Assembly (NCBI RefSeq): GCF_018070025.1
Contig: NZ_JAGPYQ010000001.1
Coordinates: forward strand, 8,246,001-8,310,000
From: Streptomyces liliiviolaceus
GTDB lineage: Bacteria > Actinomycetota > Actinomycetes > Streptomycetales > Streptomycetaceae
Direction: 5' to 3'
Length of the DNA stretch: 64,000 nucleotides
The translations under genes were made by a program, and so were the position numbers. Of the stretch, positions 24,895 to 47,668 are shown in pieces (position 1 is the stretch's first letter; every line of letters begins with the position of its first letter). The notes beneath the pieces are model-generated. The model worked only from the letters and a program-made list of their open reading frames with translations, was not told the origin of the DNA and ran no database searches.

Positions 24895-24895
24895 C
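24854..24895. other. attL core of the integrative element
   Basis: 42 bases from the anticodon loop through the 3' end of tRNA-Arg, identical to 47627-47668. The preceding base differs (C versus G) and the following base differs (C versus A), so the limits are exact. Confidence 0.92.
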
Positions 24896-30622: not shown

Positions 30623-30720
30623 TGTCAACCGTCTAGTGATGAGCGAAGCTGTTCACGACCGTGGACAAGCTGTCTACGGAAACGCACAACCGCAGAGGTC
30701 ACGGCCACGGAGGGCCCCAC

Positions 30721-31461
30721 ATGCCGCCGAAGAACACGCAGCCGAAGTACCGGCAGATCGCCGACTACCTGCGCGAAGGCATCCTGAACGGCACCTACCC
30801 GGCCGGCCAACCGCTCCCGTCCGAGGAGTCGTTGGCGAAGCAGTTCGGGGTGACGCGCCCAACGGTGCGCCAAGGACTCACAGAACTCCGGGCGTCGGGT
30901 CTAGTCGAGGCCATCATGGGCCGCGGTACGTTCGCCCGCTCCCCCCACGGCCGCCCCAGCCACACACGCCCGCGCGGCGTACGCCGGACCACGGACGGCC
31001 GCTACGCCGAAGCCGACGGCCTCCGCTGGACGGACGCCGAGCCCCCCGTAGCCACCCGCACCGACGCCCCGTTGGCCCTGGCGGATCTGCTCCGCATCCC
31101 GCCGGGCGAGCCGATGTTCACGTACGACGCCCTACAGACCGCGGACCAGGGCCACTTGCGCCAGCTCCACCGGACGTACGTGCCGTTCTCGGTGCTTCTC
31201 GACACTATGTACGAGGAGGAGGCCCCGCCGCCGGCACCGGACCTCTACAACGCGCTCGCCGAGCTGGGCCACGAACTCCACTTCACGGAGTACATCCGCA
31301 CACGCATGCCCTTGCCGGACCAGGCTCAGGCCCTCCGGCTCTCGGACGGAGTTCCGCTTCTACACGTCCTCCGAGTGACGCTCACGGAGACAGATAATCC
31401 CTTGGCATTGGAGGAGTTCCACTTGCCGGGCGATGAGTTGGAGCTCTCGTTCAGGCTGTAG
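30721..31461 (+). CDS. GntR-family repressor of the element (KorSA-like)
   Basis: 246 residues from ATG 30721 (GGAGG seven bases upstream); a GTG 20 codons earlier is less likely. N-terminal winged helix-turn-helix (KYRQIADYLREGILNGTYPAGQPLPSEESLAKQFGVTRPTVRQGLTELRASGLVEAIMGRGTFARS), then a UTRA-type ligand domain ending EEFHLPGDELELSFRL. By analogy with pSAM2 KorSA it should repress the divergent operon through the two palindromes at 30574 and 30608. A ruined second copy lies at 49507-50182. Confidence 0.9.
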   Translation: MPPKNTQPKYRQIADYLREGILNGTYPAGQPLPSEESLAKQFGVTRPTVRQGLTELRASGLVEAIMGRGTFARSPHGRPSHTRPRGVRRTTDGRYAEADGLRWTDAEPPVATRTDAPLALADLLRIPPGEPMFTYDALQTADQGHLRQLHRTYVPFSVLLDTMYEEEAPPPAPDLYNALAELGHELHFTEYIRTRMPLPDQAQALRLSDGVPLLHVLRVTLTETDNPLALEEFHLPGDELELSFRL

Positions 31462-31526
31462 CGAGCTGCAGCTGGCTCAGACTTTCTCTACATCATCAAG
31501 GCGGCTCGCTCCGCTCCCCGCACGCG

Positions 31527-31547
31527 GCCCGGCCCCCGGCCGGGCCT
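31527..31547 (+). terminator. Hairpin terminator after the GntR gene
   Basis: GGCCCGGCC / GGCCGGGCC, a 9-bp stem with a 3-base loop, 66 bases after the stop. No T-tract. Confidence 0.6.
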
Positions 31548-31682
31548 GCGCTCCTGTCTCCGCCCCGCTCCAGCCCGGCCGGCGCCCGCGCCGCGAAAGG
31601 ATGCAGCCGCATGCCGTAGGGAGGGGCACATCGTGGCTGGGGCTCGTCAGCGCGGTAACAAACGACCAAGACACACTTGGAC

Positions 31683-32108
31683 TCATCCCTGGCTATACGT
31701 GAGCTCGCGAGAACCAGGGTCGCCGAAATCCGGAGAAGGCATCAGAAGCGCGTTACCAACGTGAGTCTTATCTTGTTTCTTTCCGCCGTCTTTGGAGTCA
31801 ATTATGACCGTAATAAAAGCTACAGCCAGGACGACAGATACAACCAGCGAAGCTGCACCCACAAACACTTGCCTCACATGGTAAGTAGGCGGGTAATAAC
31901 TTCCCCGCGGAGACAGCCAGAGCCTGCTTGACTTCACCAAAGTGATGCCGGATGCAACAATTCCGGCGGCAGACAGAAAGCCCACCAGAAGGATTCCGGC
32001 GAGAAAGTTGGCCTTAAATCCGGCGAAACCGAGGATGCTCAAGATATCTGCAGCAAGCGCGACAATAATTAGATACCAACCTGCTGCCCTTTGGCTTGAA
32101 TCAGTCAC
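31683..32108 (-). CDS. Multi-helix membrane protein, third gene of the GTPase operon
   Basis: 141 residues; GTG start at 32108. Four hydrophobic stretches (about 12-27, 34-56, 84-103 with a short preceding segment) and a polar C-terminal tail with KDGGKKQDK. It begins four bases after the stop of the gene before it. Base composition here is close to 50% GC against about 70% in the core genes, pointing to acquisition from elsewhere. I recognise no family. It is probably an effector or anchor for the GTPase, by operon position only. Confidence 0.65.
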   Translation of the reverse strand: MTDSSQRAAGWYLIIVALAADILSILGFAGFKANFLAGILLVGFLSAAGIVASGITLVKSSRLWLSPRGSYYPPTYHVRQVFVGAASLVVSVVLAVAFITVIIDSKDGGKKQDKTHVGNALLMPSPDFGDPGSRELTYSQG

Positions 32109-32111
32109 ACT

Positions 32112-32630
32112 TCACCGCCCACCAAAATTGCGAGGACGGTCAATCAACGGAAAGGCGGACAGGCGCAATTTCGTGACTTCTAGTCTGAAATAGCTCCAGT
32201 CTTCCCTCTCTGCAACATCTAGCATCGTCTCGGCCACCATGGAGGCGATTTGTGTAGCAAGGCGCATCGGATACTCATCCTCCAGTTCGCGCCGATCCCT
32301 AAGGAGGGAGATGACCGAGGTGACGATTACGCTTACAGAGACAACTACAGGCGTGATAGTAGCGAAAACCCTGCTGCCAGTGTTCGAGAAGGTGATTAGT
32401 TCCGCTACAGCAACCAATGAGGCGGCCAGCGAAAAAACTGTTCCCGCGATTACTGAGAGCGTAGCGAACGTCCGGTTGTTCTCATGCCGCTTGCGCTCCT
32501 CCGCCTGAGCCAGAAGATGTTCAGCGGAGCGAAGTGCACGCTCTAGCTCCTCACCGTCACTCAGATTCCACCTAGCCGCACGGCTGTCACCGACCCGCCG
32601 GGCCGCTCCGTCCCCTTGACGCCTATTCAT
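32112..32630 (-). CDS. Coiled-coil/two-helix membrane protein, second gene of the GTPase operon
   Basis: 172 residues from ATG 32630, which has GGAGGA upstream and overlaps the GTPase stop by eight bases (ATGAATAG), so translation is coupled. A charged helical N-terminal part (EELERALRSAEHLLAQAEERKRHENNR) is followed by two hydrophobic helices (about residues 55-78 and 88-109), then a cytoplasmic amphipathic tail. An alternative ATG lies eight codons earlier. The family is not recognised. Codon use is AT-richer than the host's. Confidence 0.68.
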   Translation of the reverse strand: MNRRQGDGAARRVGDSRAARWNLSDGEELERALRSAEHLLAQAEERKRHENNRTFATLSVIAGTVFSLAASLVAVAELITFSNTGSRVFATITPVVVSVSVIVTSVISLLRDRRELEDEYPMRLATQIASMVAETMLDVAEREDWSYFRLEVTKLRLSAFPLIDRPRNFGGR

Positions 32631-33483
32631 TCCACAGTCCTCCGAGGGTATCAATCAGACATCGCAGCGAGGAGTTGCACTGAGAATTTGTCAATTGACT
32701 TGCCGCATTGAAAGACCCACGGGAAGAATGGAATTCATACGATTTTGCTTTGGCGGCAATCGGAAGAGTATGATACTGCAGGGAAATCGCTCCCAGGTCA
32801 CCTAAAAGCTCTTGCGCCCTGAGGCCGAATTCGCTATCGGGGCCAATTTGGTAATATCTTCGCGCGTCATCAACTTCCCCCCAGTACAGATCGACCTTAT
32901 TTGCCAGCACAAGTAGCCACTTTGGTTGATACTCTGCCGGAGCTAACATTCTCTTTTTTGTGATTGCTTTGCAGACTTCGTCGAAGCTGGCCAACTCGTG
33001 CCTCTTGTTGCGGGCACGCAGCGTTTGCAGGTCAAACGGGTCCAGCGCGCTCGCAACTACGTCTGAATTACTCCAGATGTGATCATATCCATTACATGCA
33101 ACGAACACCACTCCTTCGAGAAGGGTCGATTCGCCGAACATCAGATTCATTGCATAATCGCGATCCTTACTCACTTGCCCGGGGATAGTGGTTACTGAAT
33201 GAGCCTTCTTGTTCCGTCGAATAATATAGCCATCGTCTGTACTTACGCTCATCCCCGGCCCAGCGGGCCGCCTTGTTATTTGGGACCAGATCTCCGTCTT
33301 GCCCGCCCCGGAGTTTCCTGTAATCACGATTGGTGCCCCCCTTCGAAAAGAAAAGCGTTGAGACTGTAGGTCTAGATTATCTGGCGAACTTGCGTTTACC
33401 CTCGCCACGGCCTGCGGCCAACTCACCATGAACTGATGATATCCGGGAGCGTAGATCAACAACCCCTGTTCAGAGGTGGTCAT
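32623..33483 (-). CDS. Ras-like P-loop GTPase, first gene of a membrane-protein operon
   Basis: 286 residues. G1 is GNSGAGKT (56-63). The G3 position reads TTIPGQ (98-103), where the usual Asp of DxxG is replaced, as in MglA-like GTPases. G4 is ANKVDLYW (NKVD 195-198). The N-terminal 50 residues and the C-terminal 60 are not part of the G domain. The start at ATG 33483 has only a weak AGG nearby. It is tightly linked to two membrane proteins downstream. Composition is about 50% GC, unlike the core genes. A membrane-associated switch is likely; a defence role is speculation. Confidence 0.75.
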   Translation of the reverse strand: MTTSEQGLLIYAPGYHQFMVSWPQAVARVNASSPDNLDLQSQRFSFRRGAPIVITGNSGAGKTEIWSQITRRPAGPGMSVSTDDGYIIRRNKKAHSVTTIPGQVSKDRDYAMNLMFGESTLLEGVVFVACNGYDHIWSNSDVVASALDPFDLQTLRARNKRHELASFDEVCKAITKKRMLAPAEYQPKWLLVLANKVDLYWGEVDDARRYYQIGPDSEFGLRAQELLGDLGAISLQYHTLPIAAKAKSYEFHSSRGSFNAASQLTNSQCNSSLRCLIDTLGGLWNE

Positions 33484-34535
33484 CCTGATAGTTGTTCCCG
33501 AAGGTGGGCCACAGGTTGACAACTGCCGAGTGGAGAGTTGAACGGTGGGTGCCCCTCGTGCCCCTGCGCGGCAGCCCGCCGGAGTCACGGGACGTGATGC
33601 GGCTCGGCAGCATCAGAGCCGTTTGGCGCACAGTCGTATGGGCCGTGACCAATACGTGCCCGGCCGGACGGGCCCATCGCGAACACCAGACAGTCCCGCG
33701 GCTGGACACAACAATGGCCTCTGAACAACACTGCAGGTCAGAGACTGTTCACACTGCTCTCAGCGCGGAGGCGGTGTGCTATGTACCACGGTGGCATCGT
33801 TGCTACGACAGCTTTCAGGATTGCTCAGTCTCCATTGGAGAGACGGGTTGGGCGAGGAGGTTTGGTGCAGATCGAGCGTGAACCACGGGGAAAACCATGG
33901 AACCAGTTGACCACCCACCAGGTGCCTGCGCCGTCCACTCCAGTACGTACGCGCCGCACGCCTCGACCGCCACGAAGTCCTCCGGCGCCGCAGTCACGGG
34001 TCGGCCGTCGCGGGTTGCCCTGGTAGACGGTATTGACGGCGTGGCTAAGCCCCGGTGCGGGTGCAGCGAGACACACGCGTGCGTGGTCCTTCGGCGCACC
34101 CGCCGTCGTGGCTGACTGTCGTCGGCTGAGGTTCGGACGGGGCGCATAGAGGGCGCCGGCCGTCAGTCAGGTGCAGCGACGCTGAGCCGTTTCTGTGCCG
34201 TCCAAGGCCGCTCACCAGTGGCCAATGACAACCAACGACAACCACGAGGCGCACGATCTCACCGCCCCTGAACAGCAAAAACCCAGCTCACCAAGATCCC
34301 CGGCAAGACCCAGGGCAAGAAGACAGCTCATGACTCGCCTATAGCGATTCCATCGTCCGTGGTCGCACGGTGCAAGACGGCTGGGTGAGGGATTTCAGGT
34401 TCGTGCGGTGCGTGATGGTGTCTGCGTGCCAGCATGGTCGGTCCGGAGGTTGGTGGCTGGCTCTTCTCGGGGGTGCTTTGTTGTGCAGGCTGCTTTGCGG
34501 TGGCTAGCAGCGGTGCCGCTTGATTCTTAACCAGC
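33484..34535. other. 1-kb region without a convincing gene
   Basis: Open frames on both strands are short or of shadow quality. One minus-strand stretch (about 33815-34100) has a protein-like run (EDFVAVEACGAYVLEWTAQ), which may be a gene remnant. The right part contains repeat copy A (34198-34322). No RNA gene is recognised. Confidence 0.4.
34198..34322. repeat. Direct repeat copy A of a ~125-bp sequence
   Basis: About 80% identical to 40341-40469 in the same orientation. The last 45 bases are nearly exact, including the block from AAAACCCAGCTCACC through GGGCAAGAAG. A short degenerate third copy is at 39525-39560. The two long copies bracket 6 kb of cargo. Confidence 0.8.
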
Positions 34536-34536
34536 G

Positions 34537-34566
34537 AAAAATGAGCGGTCGCACAGCGACCGTTCA
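34537..34566 (-). terminator. Intrinsic terminator with U-tract
   Basis: On the minus strand TGAACGGTCGC-TGT-GCGACCGCTCA is followed by TTTTT: an 11-step stem, 3-base loop and T-run, 53 bases after the stop of the gene at 34619. A textbook factor-independent terminator, rare in Streptomyces DNA, which supports a foreign origin for the two-gene operon. Confidence 0.8.
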
Positions 34567-34618
34567 GCGCGTTGCCGACTCGACCCCTTCCTGACTCCGC
34601 TCGGCCGTGGGATCTACT

Positions 34619-35209
34619 TCACAGCCACGGGTCTTTACCCGGCGGCAGCTCGTTCTCGTCATCAGGGTCCGTACGGGCGAGGTTCAGTAGCCATATGTCG
34701 GGCCCCTCCATCACGTTGCTGGTCAGCATCGCGGTAATGGGAAGGTGCGGCAGGGGGACCCGAACGCGCATGTATGTCTTCCGTCCGTCATCGTCCATCT
34801 CTCGGAACCAATCGTACAGTTCCCTGTCGATGGGTATGCGAAAATACCATTCGATGGCATTGAAGGCATGAAGCACCTTTGCATGTCGCTTTTCAAGATC
34901 TATCGATATGCTCCACGGCGCTATCGTTGGTTCGCATGACCTGCGGTGCCAGCGATATCCGCGCTTACGGGGTGGAGACGTAGATAATTCGACCACGACT
35001 ATGCCGACCTGTTCCAGGTACAGCGGTGTTGCCCCTTCATTCTTCAGCGTCACCGTAAGGTCGATCTCGTTACCCATAGTCCTGTATTTACACTGCACGA
35101 TCATGCGGGGTCGGGCGCGTCGATAGTTTTTCAACGTGATCGCAGCGTTGACGGTGGTTGCTAATCCGGCACCCAAGGCAATACCACGAGCCCACCAGTC
35201 AGCCGCCAT
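34619..35209 (-). CDS. Membrane-anchored protein, second of a paralogous pair
   Basis: 196 residues with one N-terminal helix (GIALGAGLATTVNAAITLKNY), then YRRARPRMIVQCKYRTMGNEIDLTVTLKNEGATPLYLEQVGIVVVEL, a beta-rich segment reminiscent of an Ig-like or sandwich domain, and an acidic end. The ATG follows the upstream stop by two bases with GGAGG as ribosome site. The upstream protein has the same layout (helix, then YRRGGPRLKLTVDY...VQNRSAAVVEVERVYL), so the pair arose by duplication. Function unknown. Confidence 0.7.
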   Translation of the reverse strand: MAADWWARGIALGAGLATTVNAAITLKNYRRARPRMIVQCKYRTMGNEIDLTVTLKNEGATPLYLEQVGIVVVELSTSPPRKRGYRWHRRSCEPTIAPWSISIDLEKRHAKVLHAFNAIEWYFRIPIDRELYDWFREMDDDGRKTYMRVRVPLPHLPITAMLTSNVMEGPDIWLLNLARTDPDDENELPPGKDPWL

Positions 35210-35211
35210 GC

Positions 35212-35850
35212 CTACTCCGCCTCCCCCTCTAGCTCCCGCAGAGCGTCATCCAGGGTGGCTGGAAGCCTACGCCCGCGCACCGCCTCGTTGAGCCGAGTCA
35301 TGTCCTGGTGAACACCTCCGTTGTAGCGCTTCGTTGTGAGGTAGAGCATGGGACGGCTGTGCGCTTCAAGTCCATTGGTAAGCATGGCCTCAACGCGAAA
35401 TGCCAGAAGCCGGGCCATCCACTTGTCGGGGCGTGCCATCACAGTGAAGCCCTCATTGAGGACCCATCGTGCGCCCCCAAATGCGGGGATCGTCCGCTTG
35501 TCCTCCCCTTCCAGGAGGGTCACGATGCCAAGCCCCGTGAAGCGCCAAAGCTGCATAAAATAGGCACGGCGGCCCATGAACGTGGCAGCTAGCGGTGGCA
35601 TAACGGGGCGGAGGTAGACCCTTTCTACCTCTACGACCGCTGCACTCCGGTTCTGTACGTGTACGTGGAGGTACCCCCGCCATGTGGTCTCGTCTGACGG
35701 ATCGAGGTCCCCGTGGCGCGAGGAGTAGTCCACGGTTAGCTTGAGACGGGGGCCCCCGCGCCGGTACGTGGCTGCGGACACCAGCATGTTGGCAGCGGTA
35801 AAGCAGGCACTCAGGGACGCCACGAGGATGGCGATGACGGGTAGCGACAT
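35212..35850 (-). CDS. Membrane-anchored protein, first of a paralogous pair
   Basis: 212 residues: an N-terminal membrane helix (about 4-25), then TYRRGGPRLKLTVDYSSRHGDLDP and a beta-rich domain with VHVQNRSAAVVEVERVYLRP, and a helical Arg/Glu-rich C-terminus (RGRRLPATLDDALRELEGE). It is related in layout and in the YRRxxPR motif to the next gene. The two form an operon closed by the terminator at 34537. No enzyme motif is visible. Confidence 0.7.
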   Translation of the reverse strand: MSLPVIAILVASLSACFTAANMLVSAATYRRGGPRLKLTVDYSSRHGDLDPSDETTWRGYLHVHVQNRSAAVVEVERVYLRPVMPPLAATFMGRRAYFMQLWRFTGLGIVTLLEGEDKRTIPAFGGARWVLNEGFTVMARPDKWMARLLAFRVEAMLTNGLEAHSRPMLYLTTKRYNGGVHQDMTRLNEAVRGRRLPATLDDALRELEGEAE

Positions 35851-36134
35851 GAACGCAGGATGCCCAACCCGCCATGTGCGGCATGCCGGATTTGAGGAAG
35901 TTCAGCGGTAGTTGTGGTGGGGGTGGCGTGCGCCGCCATCGGTTCCTGAAGGGCGAGGACCAGCGGCCGGCTCAGACCGCGGTGGACGCGGGAGCGTCCC
36001 GGAGCTGGGCTCCCGAGGTGTCTGTCGTACGCTCGATCTTCGCCCACGCTCCACGGTGTGGGGGACCGAGCGGGGGTTCCGGCCACACGTGGGGCGTGGC
36101 CGGGACTTATCCGCGGTGCATGGGTGCGGTGGGG

Positions 36135-36380
36135 CTACTTGCCGTTGTCGCCCTCGTCGTCCTTCCGCTCCTGGTGCGTGTGGTCCGGATTGGGCAACGG
36201 CTTCTTGGGGTTAGGGTCCGGCGCAGGCGGGGGCGGCTTCGGGCGCCCTACTGCGGCATCCCCCCGCACGTTGCGCCGTACCTGAAACACCCTCACGGCC
36301 TGGTCGACCGCTTGGGATGTGATGACCGCTGCGATGGCGAGAGCCGTCGACACCGGTACGACCCACTCAGGCATGTTCAT
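36135..36380 (-). CDS. Small single-helix membrane protein, paralogue 1
   Basis: 81 residues (MNMPEWVVPVSTALAIAAVITSQAVDQAVRVFQ...). One N-terminal transmembrane helix, a basic middle, a Pro-rich linker (PKPPPPAPDPNPKK) and a charged tail DHTHQERKDDEGDNGK. AAAGG lies about 12 bases upstream. Similar proteins are at 38039 and 41492. Paralogue 2 even shares the tail pattern HTxQExKxD and the upstream leader. Unknown function. Confidence 0.6.
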   Translation of the reverse strand: MNMPEWVVPVSTALAIAAVITSQAVDQAVRVFQVRRNVRGDAAVGRPKPPPPAPDPNPKKPLPNPDHTHQERKDDEGDNGK

Positions 36381-37018
36381 GTGCTGTTGCTGCCTTTCGC
36401 TCGCATTTTGGGCACCCCGAACCGCGCCCGCAGCGGGCATCGGTAGTGGGGGCTGGTCGCGGACCGCGTCGGAGTGGCGGTCGCGACCTCGATGGGATTT
36501 CCCACCGTTTGATCATCTTGTTGGTGATTGCTGGTATTTGTGGACCCTTCGGAGTATTTGGTTCCTCGTATGGGAATACGAAGGATTCACGGGCGCAGTT
36601 TCATCACGCACCCGAATTGGCGGCGAGAGATTTTCTGGTGAAGTGGCTGCACATAGAAAGGCGCAGTGCAGCACGGCATGATCCGTCTGGTTCCCACGGG
36701 GGTCAGGGGTAACGCGGCTATGTCGGACCCTCCTGTGAGTCTCCGCGTGGTGGTGCTGCTGAGCCGTTCCCACGTACCTAGTGCAATGCAATCCGAATTG
36801 TTTCGGCGTGCTCATGGACGGGTCACGTACGGGTCAAGGATAGGTCAAGGGCCGTTCGGCATCTGGGGTTCCATGAGTCGTCTTCAATACATACTGCTGC
36901 GTCGTTGGCCACGGCGGAAAACGGTGGTCGAATTGTGTACAGAAATTGCATCAGGTCAGAGCTGAGCAGGAGGGCCGCGCCGTGCGGGCAGGAGGAGGAT
37001 TCCGCTGGTCAGGCAGGG
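36381..37018. other. Non-coding, partly AT-rich spacer
   Basis: No supported gene. The left 80 bases are the leader of paralogue 1 and resemble the leader of the gene at 38039. From 36495 to 36660 the sequence is AT-richer than its surroundings. The segment ends at the box array that starts at 37019. Confidence 0.4.
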
Positions 37019-37273
37019 TGTGGATATGTGGTTGAGGTCCACAGTCCACACCCAAAAAGCGTGGACCAGGTGTGGACCGAGGTCCACACTTGGGGGATCT
37101 AGCGCGGTTGACGAGAGGTAAAGCTCCACACTTATGTGTTTTTTATCGAAAGCGCTCTGACCTGGGAAAATACATAAAAATAATGTTAAATGCTCTAAGG
37201 GAAATGTACGCAAGAGCGCCACAGGATCAATGTGGACCTGGTCCACAGGTCCACAGTCCACAGTTGGTCCACA
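37019..37273. repeat. Array of GTCCACA boxes flanking an AT-rich core (DnaA-box-like; candidate origin or operator)
   Basis: Nine exact copies of GTCCACA or its complement (37037, 37044, 37071, 37082, 37231, 37241, 37249, 37256, 37267) plus three one-base variants (37019, 37060, 37124) in 255 bases. They form two clusters around a low-GC stretch (37131-37210). Two pairs form near-perfect palindromes: TGTGGACC-GA-GGTCCACA (37071-37088) and TGTGGACC-T-GGTCCACA (37231-37247). The Streptomyces DnaA box consensus is TTGTCCACA, so DnaA binding is plausible, though position 2 is G or A here. It could instead be a regulator or partition site. Confidence 0.75.
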
Positions 37274-37511
37274 TCCGGGGCACTTCCTCGCGGGTTATCC
37301 CCTGCGGTAATGCCGCGCGGAAGTGTGGGTCATATGAACTCAGTCTCATGCGGGTCCAGGACGTTCGAGATCAGGGTTCCGCCAAGCCAAGCCGGTTTGG
37401 CTCCGCTCACGCGCGGGCGTTTCCGAAATCGGCTTGGAGGTCTTGCCTTCCTTTACCTTCTACGCTGATTGCGGCCCGGCGAACCCGGCCTGACACGTCA
37501 AGGAGCAGCGC

Positions 37512-38038
37512 CGTGCGTGACCAGGGGTGTTGGCTGTCAGCGTGGTGACGTCGAGGGAGGAACGCGGGCGGTGACTCCCGCTCGCCGTTGCTGGTCATGC
37601 CGACTGCTGGAAACACCCGACGCTCGGACCTTAGAGGAGAGAGCCCGCGTGGAGGGCGCCCAAGGTAATGAACTCCCCGAGCGTTGGAGCCTGTTGCCCG
37701 GTCCCGTCGCGTGTTTCCGCAGGTGGGGACACGGGGTGACCTCCCGTCGAGCCGCTGGGTGGGCAGAGGCGTACCGCAGTGAGTGCAGGCCAGGGGTTCG
37801 AGGGTCAGGGCTCCGGGGTGGGGCCGGAGCATGGGGTGGATCACGGGTCGCCCCAGTGGTGCAGGGGCGAGGTGGGTGGCGAGGTGTGGATTCGGGGGTG
37901 CCGGATGGTCGTGCGTCGCGCCGAGAGGTGAGCCGGCGAGGGCTTTCGTGGGCCCGTGGGGAGGAGCGCGATGGTTCCTCCCTGAAGGGAGAGTCGGCGT
38001 ACGACCGGAGGTTGGATAAGACAAGCTTTGAGTGCCCA
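37512..38038 (+). pseudogene. Probable 5' part of a group II intron with truncated reverse transcriptase
   Basis: The stretch starts GTGCG, the bacterial group II 5' consensus, and continues with structured GC-rich RNA-like sequence (for example GGAACGCGGGCGGTGACTCCC, CAAGGTAATGAACT). It ends in a frame reading GESAYDRRLDKTSFECP (about 37988-38038), resembling the N-terminus of intron-encoded reverse transcriptases. Then it stops abruptly; the RT domains and the 3' intron end are missing. Recognition is from memory and moderate; no covariance model was run. Confidence 0.4.
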
Positions 38039-38359
38039 TCAGGCCGACCAGCACTCTGGCCTGTTGGGACTTAGACGTCGAGGTCGTAGGCGAGCACGGT
38101 AGGAGTACCTGTTCTCCTCGGCCTGGTGCGGAGGTTTGGCCGGCTCCCCCTCGTGCTCCTGGTCACCCTTCTGTTCCTGGCGCGTGTGGGCGGAGTCCAC
38201 AGGCGGGGGCGTCTCCTTTCCTCGGAAGCTTCGGTACTTGTCCCGCACCTTTTCGGCGCTGTCGAGTAGTTTGACCGCCGCGTCCCCTGCCTGAGACCCG
38301 ACGATTTTTACTCCGCCGATGGCAGCTATCGCCACCACCGCCCACTCACCTACGCTCAT
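38039..38359 (-). CDS. Small single-helix membrane protein, paralogue 2
   Basis: 106 residues (MSVGEWAVVAIAAIGGVKIVGSQAGDAAVKLL...). One membrane helix, a charged helical stretch (SAEKVRDKYRSF), PPPVDSAHTRQEQKGDQEHEGE, and then an Arg-rich end that may be read-through into the joined intron remnant. The start ATG 38359 and about 80 upstream bases match those of paralogue 1 (AAAGGCAGC leader, CACCCCGA block). Function unknown. Confidence 0.6.
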   Translation of the reverse strand: MSVGEWAVVAIAAIGGVKIVGSQAGDAAVKLLDSAEKVRDKYRSFRGKETPPPVDSAHTRQEQKGDQEHEGEPAKPPHQAEENRYSYRARLRPRRLSPNRPECWSA

Positions 38360-38540
38360 GTGCTGTGCTGCCTTTCGTTTCGATTTCGAGCACCCCGATG
38401 AAGCCCGCAACGGGGCGTTTCTGATGCGGAGTTGGTCGCCGTCCATCCCGCACCCTAGAGGGGCATGGCGACCGGATACTGGGCCGAGATATAAACGCGA
38501 TGGCGGACATCTAGGAGCACACATGATGACTAGCGTCTTG

Positions 38541-38918
38541 TCACGCGCGGGTCCGTGATGCCTTGGGTGCCATTCGTGGAAAGCCGCTGGCCAGCGCTCT
38601 GTGTAATGCCACCCAACTCTCGTAGTCCTCAGTCTGCACAGGCCCTGGAACGAGAGTGGGTTCGAAGTTCCGGAGGATCGCGGCGGAACTTTCGTATCCG
38701 AGATACGTCGCGAAATCCTGTGTGACCCACGTGCGGAAGGGCGCCCGCAGGTTGGTGACAGACACGTCGACGGTGCCAGCCTCGATGCGAATCACCTTTG
38801 AGGGTGACCAGTTGGTCTTGGCCGCTGCTTAGTACTGCTTCAACCCCGCAGCCTCCCTCGCCTTCTTGAGGCGGTCACGCAGTCGTGCACGCTGGAATCC
38901 GGGCTCTTCCTGTGGCAC
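38541..38918 (-). pseudogene. Broken XRE/DUF5753 regulator
   Basis: From GTG 38918 the frame reads MPQEEPGFQRARLRDRLKKAREAAGLKQY, then a TAA stop at 38829-38831. It continues in the same frame with AAAKTNWSPSKVIRIEAGTVDVSVTNLRA and a short DUF5753 start (LGYESSAAILRNFEPTLVPGPVQTEDY). The rest of the roughly 270-residue regulator is gone. The complete relative in this window is at 54610. Confidence 0.75.
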
Positions 38919-39601
38919 CGAGGTCTCCGTCCTGCCGCAGTTGCGATGTCTGTTGGAAGGCTAACGGCCTCAATGCCGCCAGGCACACCGCTTACGGCTG
39001 CTCGGCGGATGGTGAGGGCGCCGAGCAACTCGCCGTCGTGCCGAAGTGCCTTACGAACCAACTACGCTTTCCCCGAGAGGTAGTTGGCTGCTCGTCCGAA
39101 CGCGAAGGACCCTCTTCTTCGGGGGAGATATATCCTCCATAGCGGTATGTCTGTTATAGCGGGGTACCGCTTCTAGCCATGTCGCAGACGGCCAGGCAGC
39201 AGACATCACCCTGTCTCTTTGCGAGTACGCCGGTTGACGGGTCATGGACGCTGGCCGGATGCGCGGGGAACGTGCGCGCTTCCCGAGAGCTGAGCGTCCA
39301 TCGGGCCACCCAACCTGACATCACCAGTTGACATCAACGACGGCGTACACAGGCAACCTTGGACAGTCCCGCATGGCGCAGCCGTACCCGCAGAAGGGCT
39401 CCGTGGAGGCTGCTCGATCGAACTCCTAAAGCGGTGGTCAAGGGGCCTGTGCCCTTCGCATGCCAGGTCCGGCGGGAAGCCGCGGGTAACACCGGCACTC
39501 GCAGCAAATGTGTTGCCACCCCCAGAACAGCGAAAACGCAGGTCACCAGGATTCCCGCACTGGGGAGGGTGTGGGGCCGAGGTAGTGCCGTTGGCCGAAG
39601 G
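38919..39601. other. Non-coding region with a small inverted repeat
   Basis: No gene supported in 680 bases. At 39141-39171 AGCGGTA and TACCGCT form a 7-bp inverted repeat with 17 bases between, and ATAGCGG occurs twice (39140, 39157), which could be an operator. A degenerate third copy of the 125-bp repeat is at 39525-39560. Confidence 0.4.
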
Positions 39602-40177
39602 TCAAAAGGCCAGATCGAGGTAGCTCTGCACTACAAGCCCGAAAGCAACGAAGAAGAAGCCAATCGTCTGCTCCCGCAAACCACGAATCGTTGCCCGCTT
39701 CGACTCCTCATCGCGAGCGGTGAGACGAGCCTCGAGGTCGTTGCCGATCTTCCGGTCTTCCTGTTCTCGTGCTTTCGTCTCTCGCCCTAGGTCGTACTGC
39801 ACGTCCTGGGCCAGTGTGAAGACACGATTCAGGCGTTCCTCGACCGCGGCCTTGAAGGCGTCGGCGTCCTGTGCGGGGTCAGGCAAGGGCCCGAACGTGA
39901 CGATGCCCCGAGCGCTTCCCGCGAAGTTGATCTCCATTGCCGCGCCGAGGCCATGAACCACTGTCGGTCGTGGGCGTCCGAGGAGGCGACGGCAGAGTCT
40001 TTTGAAGCCGGTCCAAAGTCGTCGGACTACTCCAAGCACGGTCGCCAGAACAGTGGCGAAGAAACGTTCGCCCGGAGCTGCGACGTCTCTGAACGTGTTG
40101 GACAGGCCAACGGCCGCCATAACCAGACCGCCAACCTGCATCGCGATGCTGATAAGCGTCAGCGCAGTCTTGAACAC
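39602..40177 (-). CDS. Membrane protein with cytoplasmic coiled coil
   Basis: 191 residues: a hydrophobic N-terminal helix (about 8-26), possibly a second (38-54), a basic stretch (RRLWTGFKRLCRRLLGRPRP), a soluble part, a coiled coil (EERLNRVFTLAQDVQYDLGRETKAREQEDRKIGNDLEARLTARDEESKR) and a C-terminal hydrophobic helix (IGFFFVAFGLVVQSYLDLAF). Composition is host-like. No family recognised. Confidence 0.68.
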   Translation of the reverse strand: MFKTALTLISIAMQVGGLVMAAVGLSNTFRDVAAPGERFFATVLATVLGVVRRLWTGFKRLCRRLLGRPRPTVVHGLGAAMEINFAGSARGIVTFGPLPDPAQDADAFKAAVEERLNRVFTLAQDVQYDLGRETKAREQEDRKIGNDLEARLTARDEESKRATIRGLREQTIGFFFVAFGLVVQSYLDLAF

Positions 40178-40637
40178 CTAGCCATCATCGATCTTGCACG
40201 ATGATCAAATGTGCTGATCGCGCAAACTGCCCTCCTGCCTGCGGCGGCACGCTCGCCGAGCGCGGGCAGGCCGCTGCTGCCGACGGGGCTGGAAGGTCTC
40301 GGCCGCCAGCCGAGCGCGCCGAAGCTGGGCCGCCCCTGGGCCGTCCGAGGTCGCTCGACAGCGGCCAAGGACGACCAACGACGACCACCAGACGCGCGAG
40401 CCCACCGCTTCTGAGCAGGGAAAACCCAGCTCACCAAGATCCCCGGCAACACCCAGGGCAAGAAGAAGTAGAATTCATGATCGCGCTCCTCGTCCCTGCA
40501 CATAACTCGGATGAGAGGCGCTTTCATGCTGAGGGCCCTCTTGGATCACTGTGTCTCGGCCCCGATCTCGCGGCCGGAGTTCATGAACGCATGCCCTTTA
40601 TCGGCAGGAGCGACCGGGTGCCCCCTGCCCGTAGCTG
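40178..40637. other. Gap holding repeat copy B
   Basis: 460 bases with no supported gene. The middle is repeat copy B (40341-40469). The left part is GC-rich; no promoter is recognised. Confidence 0.4.
40341..40469. repeat. Direct repeat copy B of a ~125-bp sequence
   Basis: Partner of copy A at 34198-34322, same orientation and about 80% identical, with a near-exact 45-base right end. It marks the right edge of the 6-kb block of cargo genes. Confidence 0.8.
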
Positions 40638-41153
40638 TCAGGAGTGAGGGAGTCGCCACAGATGGGACTGCGCTCGGGCTTGAGGCGGCGGCATCGTGCG
40701 CACCAGGTGATAGAGGTTCTCAAAGTACTCTTGCCAGCGATTTGGATCTGGAAGAGCGTTCTGTGCCCGCTTGGCTCGCTCCACCCGTACCAGCGGCTCC
40801 ATGCGTTCCCACACCGAGATCACGGATCCACCGAGGTAGCCGGAAACGGGTTCGATGTCGACAACACCGTGTGTGACCAGAGCACCCAGGTTGTCGTAAA
40901 ACCAGGCCAGTTCACGTATCAGATTCCGCTCGGCCTCCGGCAGCCCCTCCATTCCGGCGGCCAAATCCCATTCTGGCAGCTGCTCGAACACGACCTCCCG
41001 GGCCCTGGCCAGGCGCATGCTGCGATGTTCGCGGAAGAGATCTACCAGAACCGGCAGCGTGTTCGTATGTTCCGCCAGCCGCAGCTGCCGAACGGACACG
41101 AGGACGGAGACACCCAGCGCCATCACCGATACCACCAAAGCCGCAATCTCCAC
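40638..41153 (-). CDS. DUF4760-like membrane-anchored protein
   Basis: 171 residues from GTG 41153 (GGGGGA seven bases upstream); the frame stays open to 41228. One N-terminal membrane helix (EIAALVVSVMALGVSVLVSVRQL), then LPVLVDLFREHRSMRLARAREVVFEQLPEWD, ELAWFYDNLGALVTHGVVDIEPVSGYLGGSVISVWERMEPLVRVER. The pattern of FREHRS / YDNLGxLV / GVVD / W matches the DUF4760 type as I remember it. Function unknown; such proteins are common in accessory islands. Confidence 0.65.
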   Translation of the reverse strand: MEIAALVVSVMALGVSVLVSVRQLRLAEHTNTLPVLVDLFREHRSMRLARAREVVFEQLPEWDLAAGMEGLPEAERNLIRELAWFYDNLGALVTHGVVDIEPVSGYLGGSVISVWERMEPLVRVERAKRAQNALPDPNRWQEYFENLYHLVRTMPPPQARAQSHLWRLPHS

Positions 41154-41211
41154 CGAGTCCCCCGATTCCCACCGTTTGGCCTTCCGTTCCCTGCCCACGA
41201 CGCGAGCAACC

Positions 41212-41403
41212 TCAAATGCCGGGGCCAAGCAGGCGGCCTCTAATAACCGCCCCGGCCGTAACCACCAGGTCGTAGGGCCGGATTACAGGGCCGTCGCAGG
41301 CGCGACAGGCGTGCCAGAACCGTGCCAGGTCGTATGGAGAACCATGGGGAACATCGGATACCAACTCGGTAACCGTCTCGCGAACAGGCACTCTTAGCCG
41401 CAA
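41212..41403 (-). CDS. Possible short protein with a CRAC motif
   Basis: 63 residues from a TTG at 41403 (RLRVPVRETVTELVSDVPHGSPYDLARFWHACRACDGPVIRPYDLVV). The wording is protein-like, but there is no convincing ribosome site and no known family. It may be a remnant of a larger gene. Listed because nothing else explains the stretch. Confidence 0.3.
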   Translation of the reverse strand: MRLRVPVRETVTELVSDVPHGSPYDLARFWHACRACDGPVIRPYDLVVTAGAVIRGRLLGPGI

Positions 41404-41491
41404 GTCAGTGAGAGAGACGAGGCCAAAGCATATGAGCCTCCCAAACTTAGAGCCTGTCAGCCGGCGGTGGGACGAGACCCAGGCGGGTGCT

Positions 41492-41743
41492 TCACTGATT
41501 TTTGGACGCGTCAGTGCCGGGTGCCTCGCTCTGAGCCTTAGGTGACAGTTCGCCAGCTGCTGATGTACCGCCCTTGGGCAAGGTAACGGGTCCCCTGAGC
41601 TCAGCCCGGACCGAGCGGATGGCTCGGACTGCTTTGATGACCTTCACCGCAACGACGGGGACTTGGTCAAGAGCGTGGCTGAGCGCGAAGACTGCGCTCG
41701 TGATGACGCCTACAGCAACGACAGCCCAACCAGCGATTTCCAT
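41492..41743 (-). CDS. Small single-helix membrane protein, paralogue 3
   Basis: 83 residues (MEIAGWAVVAVGVITSAVFALSHALDQVPVVAVKVIKAVRAIRSVRAEL...). It resembles the proteins at 36135 and 38039 in the Trp-Ala/Val-Val start, one helix, and a basic amphipathic segment; the tail is different (Ser/Ala/Pro-rich). GGTGG lies six bases upstream of ATG 41743. Function unknown. Confidence 0.55.
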   Translation of the reverse strand: MEIAGWAVVAVGVITSAVFALSHALDQVPVVAVKVIKAVRAIRSVRAELRGPVTLPKGGTSAAGELSPKAQSEAPGTDASKNQ

Positions 41744-42252
41744 CTGACCACCGAGCCTTCGCGAGGAACGATCACAGAACCAAGGCTCAGACGAAAAGCA
41801 GACCGCCAAACAGCAGTGCTACGTTCCATCGTCGCCTCCCCCCCGATGGCCCTGCGTCAGCTCTGACTCGTCAGATGACGCTGGACGCCGCAGTCACCCA
41901 TGTGGACTACGTATTGCGACTATACCCGCGTATACTCGATCAAATCAGCGGAAGCAACGAAGAGTTGACGGTTGGAGGCGCGCGTAGCGGAGCCCGCTCA
42001 CGGATCAAGATCAGTGTCACGAAACATTGGTCCGATCAATGTCGAGGCCTCGACGCTGTCCGTCTCGGTATCTGTCTCATCCCCGTTCAAGGCCGTTCAG
42101 ATGAGACCAGGATTCGGGCAGTTCGTGAGCGGGCCGCCCATAACACAGGTGAACGCCCCCGCACGCACCCAGCCACCCCATCACCACAGCTGGAAACCGT
42201 GTTGGTCTTCACGGCAACGCCGGCCCACGACACCGCCAGTCGCGGCAGTTAG
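41744..42252. other. Gap of about 500 bases without a supported gene
   Basis: Short open frames only. The leader of paralogue 3 occupies the first ~100 bases. An AT-richer stretch with repeated GTAT/CGTATAC words (41909-41940) may hold a promoter. Confidence 0.35.
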
Positions 42253-42309
42253 GTTGAGGGCGTAAACGAGGAAGCGATCACCATCAAGCTCACGCGCGAT
42301 CAAGCGTTC

Positions 42310-42603
42310 GTGCTGTCGGACTGGCTCTACCACGTCATGTTCCAGTCCGACGACCTTGAAGGGATCGTGCCCAACCGAGCCGTCTGGTCGCCCATCTATG
42401 CGATCTCCGGAACGCTGGACAAGACGCTGAGCGAGATCTTCATGCCCGACGACGGCCCACGCCTTGAAGCGGCCAAGGAGCGTCTCCGCGTCAAGTCGTA
42501 CGGGGGAGCCGACGACACCAGGCCCGGCAACGACGCACCACAAGCGCACCAGATAGAGCGGGGAACAGCGGGGAATCACGGCGAAAGCAACCACGGCCGA
42601 TGA
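42310..42603 (+). CDS. Conserved-looking small protein, start uncertain
   Basis: From GTG 42310 the protein is 97 residues (MLSDWLYHVMFQSDDLEGIVPNRAVWSPIYAISGTLDKTLSEIFMPDDGPRLEAAKERL...). Residues that look native extend upstream in frame to 42253 (EEAITIKLTRDQAFV), but no ATG, GTG or TTG exists there. Either a rare ATC/ATT start is used (GAGGAAG lies just before an ATC) or the 5' end is lost. The C-terminal 30 residues look like read-through. Possibly a decaying gene. Confidence 0.5.
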   Translation: MLSDWLYHVMFQSDDLEGIVPNRAVWSPIYAISGTLDKTLSEIFMPDDGPRLEAAKERLRVKSYGGADDTRPGNDAPQAHQIERGTAGNHGESNHGR

Positions 42604-42887
42604 GACCCGGTACCAGGCGAACGCCCAGTTCAGCAGCCGTACCCGCCCTGAATGCCCGCAGCTTCCCAATCTGAGAGTCTTTGGAAAGAGAATCACTTCG
42701 GAGTATTTTCCCCGCGTTCCTGTCATTGTGGCTCATTCTGGTCTGAGGAACTTGGAGAGCTCTGCAGCTTAGGCAGGTCGCACTCCTGCGTTGTGCATGA
42801 GTGCGCTCCTGACGCGCCCTACCTCCACGCGCTAACTTGCGTCGCCGAGCAGGAATGAAAACACCGGGCGCATCCTCAGGAGTAGCG

Positions 42888-43430
42888 ATGGCAGAGATCG
42901 ATCAAGATGATCATGCGGGTGCTCTTGCTGAATATTCTGCGCTCAGAAATGAGATTACTACCAGAATCAGTTTGCAACATCAAGTTCTAGCCCTTCACGT
43001 GACCGCTGTAAGCGTTGTCTTCTCTGTGGCGTTGGCCGGAAGATCTCGCTGGCCAGTTCTTTTGATCATTTCTTTCATCTCTTACGCTTCCAGCGAGATC
43101 CTGGCATCCCTCTTTCGCACTATTGAAGGCATAGCGAAGTATATCGACGAGGAACTGAGTCAAAGGGTTGCTGGTGGTCTAGGGTGGGAATCGTGGCTAG
43201 TGCAGCATAAACCTGCTAGCGAAACAGCTAGACTGACGCATCCTTACTACCTGTTGTTCCCTGGAATATCTATCGTCTCCTTAGTCGCCATCGGCGCCTA
43301 TGCATGGTCCAGTTCGCCAGATGGCCGCCAAAGCGCTTCTTTCTGGACCATAATCTCTGCCTGGCCGCTGGCGGCAGTATTCGCCGCATTGTCCTTTCGG
43401 GCTGTTCGAAGGCTACGTGCGCCGTTCTGA
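42888..43430 (+). CDS. Four-helix membrane protein of lower GC content
   Basis: 180 residues from ATG 42888 (AGGAG five bases upstream). N-terminal EYSALRNEITTRISLQHQVLALHVTAVSVVFSVAL, helices at about 33-50, 55-77, 123-142 and 151-170, and a soluble loop with EGIAKYIDEELSQRVAGGLGWESWL. The EYxALRxEI...Q...L start plus GLGWE recalls a widespread family of unnamed membrane proteins. It stands alone and its GC content is near 50%. Possibly another defence or sensing component, which is inference. Confidence 0.7.
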   Translation: MAEIDQDDHAGALAEYSALRNEITTRISLQHQVLALHVTAVSVVFSVALAGRSRWPVLLIISFISYASSEILASLFRTIEGIAKYIDEELSQRVAGGLGWESWLVQHKPASETARLTHPYYLLFPGISIVSLVAIGAYAWSSSPDGRQSASFWTIISAWPLAAVFAALSFRAVRRLRAPF

Positions 43431-43695
43431 CTGATGCCCTCAAGACAGCGTTCGAACGCTGTCGCTTATAAGTCCCCCTTCGTCCCTCATGCCTATCGGT
43501 CTGCCGTTCGTCCGGGCTGCGGCGCTGGGGCGCCGGTCCCGGCCGAGCGGCAGACCGCAGCGATACGGGGACCGAGGGCAGCGAAGGGCCCCGCACATCA
43601 TCCGTCGGGGGAACGGTGACGTACGGGGCTTGGGCAGCCGGTTGCGGGAGCAGGCTCGTACCGCAGCTGGCCGAAGCTTCTCGGGTCGACCTGGG

Positions 43696-44013
43696 TCAGG
43701 CAACCGACGAGTCGTGTCGGGCGTTCCTCGCCTCTTGCATCATCGTCTCCGCCTGCGCCGCAAGGCCCGACAGAATCAGTTCCGCCAGCATCACGGCTGC
43801 TTCAGGGCGAACGTTGCCGAGGCGTACCAGGCCCTCGCCCGAAACGTTCACGTCTGCCGTGAGGTCGGGGAAGTCCGGCTCCAGGCCCAGAGCGGTGAGT
43901 TGCGCGGCCAATACGCCGGCGCTGCGTCGAGCTTGTGCCCAGCCCCGCACGTAGGGCACGCCGGGCATCAGGTTCTCGGCTCGTTTGGCGACGACGCCCC
44001 GTCGGTCGGTCAT
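43696..44013 (-). CDS. Small soluble protein, paralogue of the next gene
   Basis: 105 residues from ATG 44013 (GGAAGG ten bases upstream). The core LGLEPDFPDLTADVNVSGEGLVRLGNVRPEAAVMLAELILSGL parallels AGLEKDFPYLRAEMNAFGQGLVELGRVSPATAERLAELLRLAL in the gene at 44018. The two are tandem duplicates in one operon four bases apart. Function unknown. Confidence 0.68.
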   Translation of the reverse strand: MTDRRGVVAKRAENLMPGVPYVRGWAQARRSAGVLAAQLTALGLEPDFPDLTADVNVSGEGLVRLGNVRPEAAVMLAELILSGLAAQAETMMQEARNARHDSSVA

Positions 44014-44017
44014 CACG

Positions 44018-44329
44018 TCAGTCCCTTCCTGATCGGTGTTCCGGAGGTTCGGCCCCGCTCTCTTCCAGTCGTCGCAGTCCCGCAGCGAGCGCCAGGCGCA
44101 GCAGTTCTGCCAGGCGCTCCGCGGTGGCCGGTGAGACACGGCCAAGCTCGACCAGGCCCTGACCGAACGCATTCATTTCGGCGCGCAGGTAAGGGAAGTC
44201 CTTTTCCAGGCCGGCAGCCAGCAGAGCATCCCGGAGGGCCGTCGTGGCGTTGCGTGTGGTGTACCAGTCGTCGCTGTCCAGAGGCGACCAGGTGGCAGCG
44301 TCGTGCCGGTGAGTGGCGTCATTTCCCAT
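44018..44329 (-). CDS. Small soluble protein, paralogue of the preceding gene
   Basis: 103 residues from ATG 44329, with a purine-rich GAGGGGG about 13 bases upstream and an 11-base overlap with the gene at 44319. N-terminal half ATWSPLDSDDWYTTRNATTALRDALLAAG, C-terminal half homologous to the gene at 43696. Part of a three-gene operon reading left from 44879. Confidence 0.68.
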   Translation of the reverse strand: MGNDATHRHDAATWSPLDSDDWYTTRNATTALRDALLAAGLEKDFPYLRAEMNAFGQGLVELGRVSPATAERLAELLRLALAAGLRRLEESGAEPPEHRSGRD

Positions 44330-44879: not shown

Positions 44880-44973
44880 GTCATCTCACCTCGGTCTGAC
44901 TCGGTCACGGCCGCGATGCCGTCCTGTGTCCAGACTCGGGGCTGGGCCCCCGGCCAGGGCAGATGACGAGAGG

Positions 44974-45018
44974 TGACGGGGGATGACGCGTCACGCGAGG
45001 ACGCGTCATCCCCCGTCA
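44974..45018. promoter_or_regulatory. 18-bp perfect inverted repeat between divergent genes
   Basis: TGACGGGGGATGACGCGT and its exact reverse complement, 9-base centre (CACGCGAGG), in the 263-base space between the genes at 44879 (minus) and 45143 (plus). Candidate operator for the XRE regulator or a bidirectional transcription block. A related ATGACG word also precedes it (44963). Confidence 0.75.
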
Positions 45019-45142
45019 GGGCGCAACCACTGCCTATCTGGGCTTACTTGGGGCGCTCGGTAGCGAACCGCGCGTACATTCAGACGTGGATCCACAGAGT
45101 CACTGACCTCAGCAGTCCCACCAGTGCACGCGCAGGGAGGGA

Positions 45143-46531: not shown

Positions 46532-46559
46532 GGACGCTACGAGCGCGCAGACCCGTCGC

Positions 46560-47626: not shown

Positions 47627-47668
47627 CTCCGGAGCCGTGTGCGCAGGTTCGAATCCTGCCGGGGGCAC
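47627..47668. other. attR core, also left end of the second element
   Basis: 42 bases identical to attL. The flanking sequence to its right is again element-type: hairpins at 47664-47684 and 47686-47725, then int. This means a second element sits directly behind, and this site was once its left attachment site. Confidence 0.9.

What the first reader, a model, noticed from the sequence alone, without database searches (positions are those of the whole stretch)
37019..37273. Dense GTCCACA box array around an AT-rich core in a rolling-circle element
Nine exact GTCCACA/TGTGGAC heptamers and three near matches sit in 255 bases in a GC-rich genome, where less than one would be expected by chance. 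They form two mirrored clusters (direct pair plus palindrome on the left, palindrome plus direct pair on the right) flanking an 80-base AT-rich stretch. The core matches the last seven bases of the Streptomyces DnaA box TTGTCCACA, and the layout resembles a theta origin or DnaA sink. That is unexpected in an element that carries a rolling-circle Rep. The palindromes TGTGGACC-N1-2-GGTCCACA could equally be operator or partition sites.
Basis: partly seen in the sequence, partly recalled or inferred. Interest (0 to 1): 0.72.

Follow-up and report, generated by a model that had tools for sequence, protein, structure and literature searches.

The report
Stray phage replication origin in Streptomyces
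A mobile element in a Streptomyces chromosome carries what looks like the replication start site of a bacterial virus, without the viral gene that normally uses it, in a slot where sister elements often keep antiviral genes; it may be a natural decoy against that virus.

Summary
The array is real: nine exact and three near GTCCACA boxes in two clusters around a 142-bp AT-enriched core, far beyond chance. It lies in the cargo of a RepSA-type integrative and conjugative element (AICE) with a 42-bp att repeat. It is not AICE machinery: it was not found in the stretches fetched from 19 relatives with RepSA 72-98% identical, three of them cut short. Its best match (74% over 227 columns) is a box array beside a 773-aa primase-helicase gene in a Streptomyces prunicolor phage locus. 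In 11 of 14 loci fetched by primase homology alone, the strongest heptamer cluster lies within 22 bp of, or just overlaps, that gene's 3' end; boxes differ by lineage. So this is a phage-type origin, orphaned: no such primase was found in the host genome. DnaA is unlikely to be its reader. In relatives the same slot holds restriction, TIR, Lamassu and similar genes, so a natural phage-origin decoy, or a phage-triggered replicon, is my preferred, inferred role; a passive relic is close behind. Nothing was tested at the bench.

The parts
24854..24895 (+). attL: 3' part of tRNA-Arg(ccg), left end of the AICE
   Evidence: 42-bp exact direct repeat with 47627-47668; tRNA 24823-24896
25155..26543 (-). 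Tyrosine integrase of the AICE
   Evidence: Pfam Phage_integrase 3.8e-11
26733..28094 (-). RepSA rolling-circle initiator of the AICE
   Evidence: Pfam RepSA 1.6e-156
28851..30173 (-). FtsK/SpoIIIE-type translocase (TraB-like)
   Evidence: Pfam FtsK_SpoIIIE 4.4e-29
30661..31461 (+). GntR/UTRA regulator, last left-hand backbone gene
   Evidence: Pfam GntR 2.6e-20, UTRA 7.1e-12; found in 18 of 19 relatives
31500..43600 (.). Variable cargo slot of the AICE (approximate limits); holds the array
   Evidence: None of the 11 slot proteins tested (31683-43430) matched in 19 relatives; right-hand backbone found in 15 of 19
37019..37088 (.). Left box cluster: exact boxes 37037+, 37044+, 37071-, 37082+; near boxes 37019-, 37060-
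37089..37230 (.). AT-enriched core (44% GC; 28% in 60 bp from 37131), presumed unwinding region; holds one more near box at 37124
   Evidence: aligned to the S. prunicolor core
37155..37164 (+). CTCTGACCTG inside the core, shared with the S. prunicolor core and with L285; a common Streptomyces word, so not specific
37231..37273 (.). Right box cluster: 37231-, 37241+, 37249+, 37256+, 37267+
   Evidence: 38 of 40 aligned columns identical to S. prunicolor at 37230-37269
43696..47489 (.). Right-hand AICE backbone (43696-44172-, 44018-44515-, 45143-46531+, APH-like 46560-47489-)
   Evidence: found in 15 of 19 relatives; APH Pfam 5.3e-18
47627..47668 (+). attR, right end of the AICE
   Evidence: 42-bp repeat of the tRNA-Arg 3' part

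Best explanation
The array is a replication origin of the kind found beside primase-helicase genes of actinobacterial phages: initiator boxes in two clusters around an AT-rich unwinding region. Here it is an orphan: a copy carried without its initiator in the cargo slot of a RepSA-type AICE. Shown: architecture, homology to an array in a phage locus, no such primase found in the host genome, not found in sister AICEs, and a slot that often holds defence-type genes in sisters. That these phage arrays are origins is inferred from position and architecture. Also inferred: when a phage with a matching primase-helicase enters, its initiator (probably through a C-terminal winged helix) binds the AICE boxes. 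That either wastes the initiator, as in laboratory 'phage-encoded resistance', or fires replication of the AICE at the phage's expense. I think the decoy/titration role is the likelier of the two.
For: Homology: blastn 74.4% over 227 columns, E 6e-33, to the S. prunicolor array; there the primase-helicase gene 5432-7753 starts about 0.47 kb from the array, with a 59-aa ORF between. Position rule: in 11 of 14 loci fetched by primase homology alone the top heptamer cluster lies 1-22 bp from, or just overlaps, the gene's 3' end and spans 170-256 bp (in L283 and L287 it ties in count with a second cluster elsewhere). A second S. prunicolor primase locus has seven GTCCGAC-type boxes too. In 17 of 19 arrays laid out, two box groups flank a gap of 105-164 bp; in 9 of 19 both inner edges carry an inverted pair, the window included. 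Six array-selected viral contigs (L201 and L204 share one array) have it 7-27 bp from a gene of one protein cluster, four of the six matched by PHROGs to DNA polymerase/primase. Boxes kept: 71 of 77 box positions identical against 111 of 162 spacer positions, p 3.6e-5; 8 of 9 exact boxes intact in the homologue. Orphan: no match in the host genome to the L204 or the S. prunicolor primase, all candidates scored. Slot: PADLOC names a family in 8 of 9 relatives scanned with hand-picked ORFs. The primase-helicase model ends in a helix-helix-strand-strand unit, residues 727-766, pLDDT 81-89; its best PDB matches are MCM helicases at low TM-scores of about 0.25.
Against: No binding, replication or phage assay exists. 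3 of 14 primase loci fail the top-cluster test: Catdawg, L289, and L285 (only 4 GTCCAAC boxes). L290 and L291 have a 74-bp gap that is not AT-rich (62-69% GC). The S. prunicolor array is upstream, not 3', of its primase. Of 23 array loci compared, 6 are linked to this primase cluster and 4 to an AAA_25 helicase, but 6 lie near a terminase-like gene and 3 share a RusA-like gene, so the heptamer is not tied to primases. Only one carrier AICE is known. PADLOC gave one weak hit (SLATT-type, 5e-4) among ten window proteins, eight of them from the slot. Conserved boxes could reflect recent capture rather than function. The empty host-genome searches carry the tool's warning that an empty answer alone proves little, though the same S. 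prunicolor query did match 15 other genomes.
Confidence: 0.5

Rival explanations
1. Passive relic: the same phage origin, left behind by a phage or prophage that once recombined with the AICE slot, with no present role.
For: About 1.6 kb around the array shows little coding signal, small ORFs not excluded; a single carrier known; recent capture would explain intact boxes.
Against: Similarity to the phage locus stops at the array edges, with only trace hits elsewhere in the AICE; boxes are better kept than spacers.
Confidence: 0.28
2. Helper-dependent replicon: the AICE uses the phage primase-helicase to replicate (and perhaps be packaged) during infection, as a satellite-like trick.
For: Complete two-cluster architecture with core; satellites Mulchroom and MiniFlayer lack obvious replicases (PMC10690885, abstract and passages).
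Against: No capsid, terminase or packaging family was found among the AICE proteins scanned; the AICE has its own RepSA and transfer genes; satellites such as PLE and PICMI bring their own initiator or primase (PMC7145576, PMC10803314, passages). The confidence is for this as distinct from titration.
Confidence: 0.12
3. DnaA-box array: a theta origin or DnaA sink using host DnaA.
For: The heptamer equals the last seven bases of the DnaA box TTGTCCACA (recalled); boxes beyond the host's own dnaA domain are degenerate too.
Against: 0 of 9 boxes have TT in front; same-position relatives use boxes unlike DnaA boxes; RepSA relatives do without it.
Confidence: 0.05
4. Phage packaging (pac) site or terminase-binding array captured by the AICE.
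For: Six environmental viral contigs have GTCCACA arrays 0.6-1.3 kb from genes of one cluster, of which L187's is a large terminase by PHROGs.
Against: In the closest homologue the primase gene is the nearer (about 0.47 kb); a sub-threshold small-terminase-type gene lies about 2 kb and the large terminase about 3 kb away; the primase rule fits an origin better.
Confidence: 0.04
5. Transfer (clt/TRS) or GntR-operator site of the AICE itself.
For: Repeat arrays occur in clt loci of Streptomyces plasmids (recalled).
Against: Not found in the stretches of 19 relatives with TraB 75-99% identical, 18 of which have a similar GntR.
Confidence: 0.01

Closest known systems
Array of the Streptomyces prunicolor NBRC 13075 phage locus (L263; IMGVR_UViG_2565956830_000003)
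   Same: Same GTCCACA boxes, same two-cluster layout, homologous core
   Different: There it sits by its own primase-helicase gene among phage genes; here no primase, different flanks, in an AICE
Primase-adjacent box arrays of actinophages (Gordonia phage Tarzan, prophiGD05-1, phiGD17-1, Streptomyces loci L282-L291)
   Same: Two box groups around a gap, in most just 3' of the primase gene
   Different: Box sequences differ (GTCCACG, CCTCCAC, GTGTCAG, GTCCCCC and others)
pRN1 plasmid origin (PMC4234260, abstract and passages read)
   Same: Putative origin 3' of a primase-helicase gene; still works when moved to another part of the plasmid
   Different: A 100-nt stem-loop rather than a box array; archaeal plasmid
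Phage-encoded resistance (PER) in Lactococcus (passage in PMC8965321; original paper not held)
   Same: A cloned phage origin interferes with that phage
   Different: PER is reported there for cloned elements; here the situation would be natural
Lambda ori inhibition phenotype (PMC3349717, abstract read)
   Same: Iterons of a phage origin on a plasmid are needed to block that phage's early replication
   Different: Lambda needs oop transcription as well; plasmid-based experiment
pSAM2-type AICEs
   Same: Integrase, HTH_17 protein, RepSA, FtsK-type translocase, GntR, att site in a tRNA gene
   Different: Array not found in 19 relatives

Membership tests
Primase-adjacent box origin of actinophages (defined here) | Two box groups around a 105-164 bp AT-enriched gap | tested here: met
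   142 bp, 44% GC
Primase-adjacent box origin of actinophages (defined here) | Sequence homology to an array beside a primase-helicase | tested here: met
Primase-adjacent box origin of actinophages (defined here) | Primase-helicase gene next to it | tested here: not met
   none found in the host genome; hence 'orphan', not a full replicon
Primase-adjacent box origin of actinophages (defined here) | Initiates replication with the initiator | not testable with these tools
   needs a bench assay; not shown for the phage arrays either
DnaA origin or DnaA sink | TTGTCCACA-type boxes | tested here: not met
   0 of 9 have TT in front; caveat that beyond the host dnaA domain it is 1 of 7
DnaA origin or DnaA sink | DnaA binding | not testable with these tools
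   -
AICE (pSAM2 type) | tRNA att repeat, integrase, RepSA, FtsK-type Tra | tested here: met
PER / phage-origin decoy | Phage-type origin on non-phage DNA without its initiator | tested here: met
PER / phage-origin decoy | Interference with the phage | not testable with these tools
Phage satellite | Packaging or capsid-redirecting genes | tested here: not met
   no such Pfam family among the AICE ORFs scanned; many had no family at all and small ORFs are unresolved
TraB clt site | Present with the same TraB in relatives | tested here: not met
   not found in stretches of 19 relatives with TraB 75-99% identical, three cut short
Partition site | ParB-like gene nearby | tested here: not met
   none among proteins scanned by Pfam

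The most novel reading that the evidence does not exclude
A conjugative element carries a natural, protein-free antiviral device: a copy of a phage replication origin that captures or misfires the incoming phage's primase-helicase initiator, kept in the same swappable slot where sister elements keep restriction, TIR and Lamassu genes. Variable boxes in phages would then partly reflect escape from such decoys.
Probability: 0.33. Interest if true: 0.87.

Novelty: new variant of a known kind. Interest (0 to 1): 0.64.

Why it matters
Origin decoys that block phages are known from cloned fragments; a natural one on a mobile element would be a DNA-only immune part that gene-based defence finders cannot see. 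The work also points to a simple rule for finding candidate origins of many actinophages: look just past the primase-helicase gene for two box groups around a gap of about 105-164 bp, with boxes that differ by lineage. That makes initiator-box specificity in these phages directly testable.

Tried and rejected
Searches that gave nothing: DNA of the array against plasmids and phages, Rfam (only the tRNA), two neighbour proteins against plasmids, primase against PDB sequences. The palindrome alone in 295 genomes: 6 other genomes had it, against 5 for the reversed control, so it is chance outside this genome.

Satellite-phage lead: the S. prunicolor phage portal is 34% identical to that of satellite Mulchroom, but Mulchroom and MiniFlayer have only 2 and 3 scattered GTCCACA copies, no GTCCACA cluster shows among the top clusters of helper MulchMansion (MindFlayer was not examined), and the S. 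prunicolor locus has its own primase; dropped.

CTCTGACCTG as an origin-specific core motif: three copies in the window against 0.18 expected, but followed by an AT run it occurs in 263 of 295 Streptomyces genomes, some copies in terminator-like settings; rejected as specific. L295 and L297 as 'more orphan origins': the L295 array is not AT-rich (52% GC at best) and its ORFs looked to me like those of a conjugative element, by eye; not used as evidence.

Dropped or partial rows: the adjacency count uses 14 loci: 10 of the 15 matching genomes (G058, G069, G086, G178, G202 not fetched at length) and 4 of 171 phage records (40 listed). The shared-gene analysis used the window and 23 hand-picked loci of 258 held. 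The genus DNA search scored only about 2 candidates per genome, and its 10 other hits were 28-45 bp pieces outside the boxes. AICE relatives: 19 of the 22 nearest full or near-full RepSA hits were fetched, on one side of RepSA only; L366, L370 and L378 were cut at 11.2, 9.2 and 3.8 kb by contig ends. Slot proteins from 11 of 15 bounded slots were scanned, ORFs chosen by eye as likely defence genes, so the defence share is an upper view.

Full report
Between 37019 and 37273 there are nine exact and three one-mismatch GTCCACA boxes, in two clusters around a 142-bp gap of 44% GC with a 60-bp minimum of 28% GC. In 400 simulated 64-kb sequences with the local flank composition, no 255-bp window held more than three. 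The region folds unusually well as single-stranded DNA (z -5.9), as expected from its inverted boxes.

The host element is a RepSA-type AICE. A 42-bp stretch of tRNA-Arg at 24854-24895 recurs at 47627-47668. Inside are an integrase, an HTH_17 protein, RepSA (E 1.6e-156), an FtsK-type translocase and a GntR/UTRA regulator. The array sits about 9 kb from RepSA in a stretch of about 1.6 kb with little coding signal, small ORFs not excluded.

The array is not AICE machinery. RepSA hits occur in 260 of 295 genomes of the genus. I fetched up to 19.9 kb on one side of RepSA from 19 of the 22 nearest full or near-full hits; three stretches were cut at 3.8-11.2 kb by contig ends. All 19 have a TraB match (75-99% identical), 18 a GntR match, 15 the right-hand block 43696-47489. 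In none did the array or its flank (blastn, E 1e-3), either of two primases, or any of eleven window slot proteins (31683-43430) match (tblastn, E 1e-4). Between the two conserved blocks lies a slot whose contents change.

Where the array comes from. A 16-base pattern from the array gave six viral contigs; one, L021, has 11 boxes in the same layout. It is a 25-kb phage contig with terminase, portal, scaffold, capsid and Lsr2-like genes and further large ORFs. The same locus is in Streptomyces prunicolor NBRC 13075 (L263), the only hit of a 23-base pattern in the genome collection (records near the window's own genome may be left out there). The two arrays align along their length, core included, at 74.4% over 227 columns, E 6e-33, with only trace hits elsewhere in the AICE. 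Box positions are 71 of 77 identical, spacers 111 of 162 (Fisher p 3.6e-5). In S. prunicolor a 773-aa primase-helicase gene starts about 0.47 kb from the array; no other box cluster lies at its 3' end.

The general rule. Among 23 hand-picked array loci compared, six viral contigs have the array 7-27 bp from a gene of one protein cluster; four of these were matched by PHROGs to DNA polymerase/primase families, and two of the six (L201, L204) carry the same array. Four more have it 16-52 bp from an AAA_25 protein. Against this, six lie near a terminase-like cluster and three share a RusA-like gene, one of which overlaps its array. Because those were chosen by the array, I then took 14 loci chosen by primase homology alone: ten Streptomyces loci and four named actinophages. 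In 11 of 14 the strongest heptamer cluster of the 7-9 kb locus lies 1-22 bp from, or just overlaps, the 3' end of the primase gene and spans 170-256 bp; in L283 and L287 it ties in count with an unrelated cluster. The heptamer differs by lineage: GTCCCCC, GTGTCCT, GTGTACC, GTTCCAA, GTGCCAT, GTCCACG, CCTCCAC, GTGTCAG. In 17 of the 19 arrays laid out the two box groups flank a gap of 105-164 bp; in 9 of 19 both inner edges carry an inverted pair; L290 and L291 differ, with a 74-bp gap that is not AT-rich. Exceptions to the position rule are Catdawg and L289 (no array found) and L285 (four GTCCAAC boxes, not the top cluster).

The likely initiator. The AlphaFold model of the S. prunicolor protein (mean pLDDT 62.6; N-terminal part poor) is mostly confident from residue 341 and ends in a helix-helix-strand-strand unit at 727-766, pLDDT 81-89, that I read as a winged helix. 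Foldseek's best PDB matches are MCM helicase subunits, E from 3.6e-8 but TM-scores only about 0.25. Pfam gives only a sub-threshold DUF3987 hit for this protein, and a clear Prim-Pol domain in two relatives. That this protein binds the boxes is inference. A precedent for a putative origin 3' of a primase-helicase gene is plasmid pRN1 (PMC4234260, abstract and passages).

Orphan status. The window's genome has no match at E 1e-3 to the S. prunicolor primase-helicase (all 16 candidates scored; the same query matched 15 of 295 genus genomes) nor to the L204 primase (all 19 scored). So whatever reads these boxes most likely comes from outside, from an infecting or newly resident phage.

The slot. 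I scanned hand-picked large ORFs from 11 of the 15 bounded slots. PADLOC named a family in 8 of 9 relatives tested: TIR effector, STAND_TPR, type II methyltransferase, type I restriction-modification, HNH effector (first 110 residues only), Lamassu LmuB, and two partial restriction hits. Pfam gave NACHT, GmrSD and reverse transcriptase domains in three slots not named by PADLOC or not tested with it. Ten window proteins, eight from the slot, gave one weak SLATT-type hit (5e-4). So the slot looks like a defence hotspot in relatives, and the array sits in it, but the link to defence in this AICE is by position.

Mechanism. Phage origins on other DNA are known to hurt the phage: PER in Lactococcus (a passage in PMC8965321; the original paper is not held) and the lambda iteron inhibition phenotype (PMC3349717 abstract). 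I therefore prefer a decoy, with phage-triggered AICE replication second and a passive relic as the main non-functional alternative. Known satellites bring their own initiator or primase (PLE, PICMI; passages). Four literature searches for origins next to phage primases, decoys or satellites, and two on AICEs with phage or defence, listed no paper that by title or start of abstract describes a natural phage-origin decoy on an AICE; the library holds open-licence papers only and lists were capped.

Limits. One carrier is known; the genus DNA search scored about two candidates per genome; the recent-capture relic cannot be excluded; that the phage arrays are origins rests on position and architecture; and the terminase-linked GTCCACA arrays keep a packaging-site reading alive at low weight.

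Noticed in passing
window 31500-43600 and loci L362-L380: AICEs of this RepSA lineage share a swappable slot between the GntR gene and a four-gene right block; in relatives it holds type I RM, TIR, STAND, Lamassu, GmrSD, reverse transcriptase and similar genes.
   Followed up: partly
295 Streptomyces genomes; window 33734-, 36952-, 37155+: CTCTGACCTG followed by an AT run occurs in 263 of 295 genomes while the reversed pattern was seen only a few times; some copies form terminator-like inverted pairs, others do not. Unexplained.
   Followed up: partly
window 47925-53302: A second integrase gene lies right after attR, followed by GntR-like, GmrSD-type restriction and HipA-like genes: probably a tandem element.
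   Followed up: no
L187, L196, L251, L229, L069, L088: Environmental viral contigs with 9-12 GTCCACA boxes near a terminase-like gene cluster (PHROGs match tested for L187; P22-type portal in L196), layout different from the primase group.
   Followed up: partly
L200, L227, L247, L139: GTCCACA arrays 16-52 bp from an AAA_25 primase/helicase-like gene, a second gene family with the same position rule.
   Followed up: partly
window 36135-36440, 38039-38524, 41492-41809: Three small proteins with alike hydrophobic stretches, by eye, scattered through the slot.
   Followed up: no
window about 34200-34330 and 40350-40470: A diverged repeat of about 110 bp, by eye, on both sides of the array region.
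   Followed up: no
L062 about 11810 (Mulchroom) and L061 about 12248 (MiniFlayer): Dense CACGACA and GGACAGAC-type repeats inside a gene of each satellite phage, possibly their own origins.
   Followed up: no
L265 (S. prunicolor, second primase locus) 1094-1263: Seven GGTCCGACA-type boxes near a second primase homologue, open frame 918 aa.
   Followed up: partly
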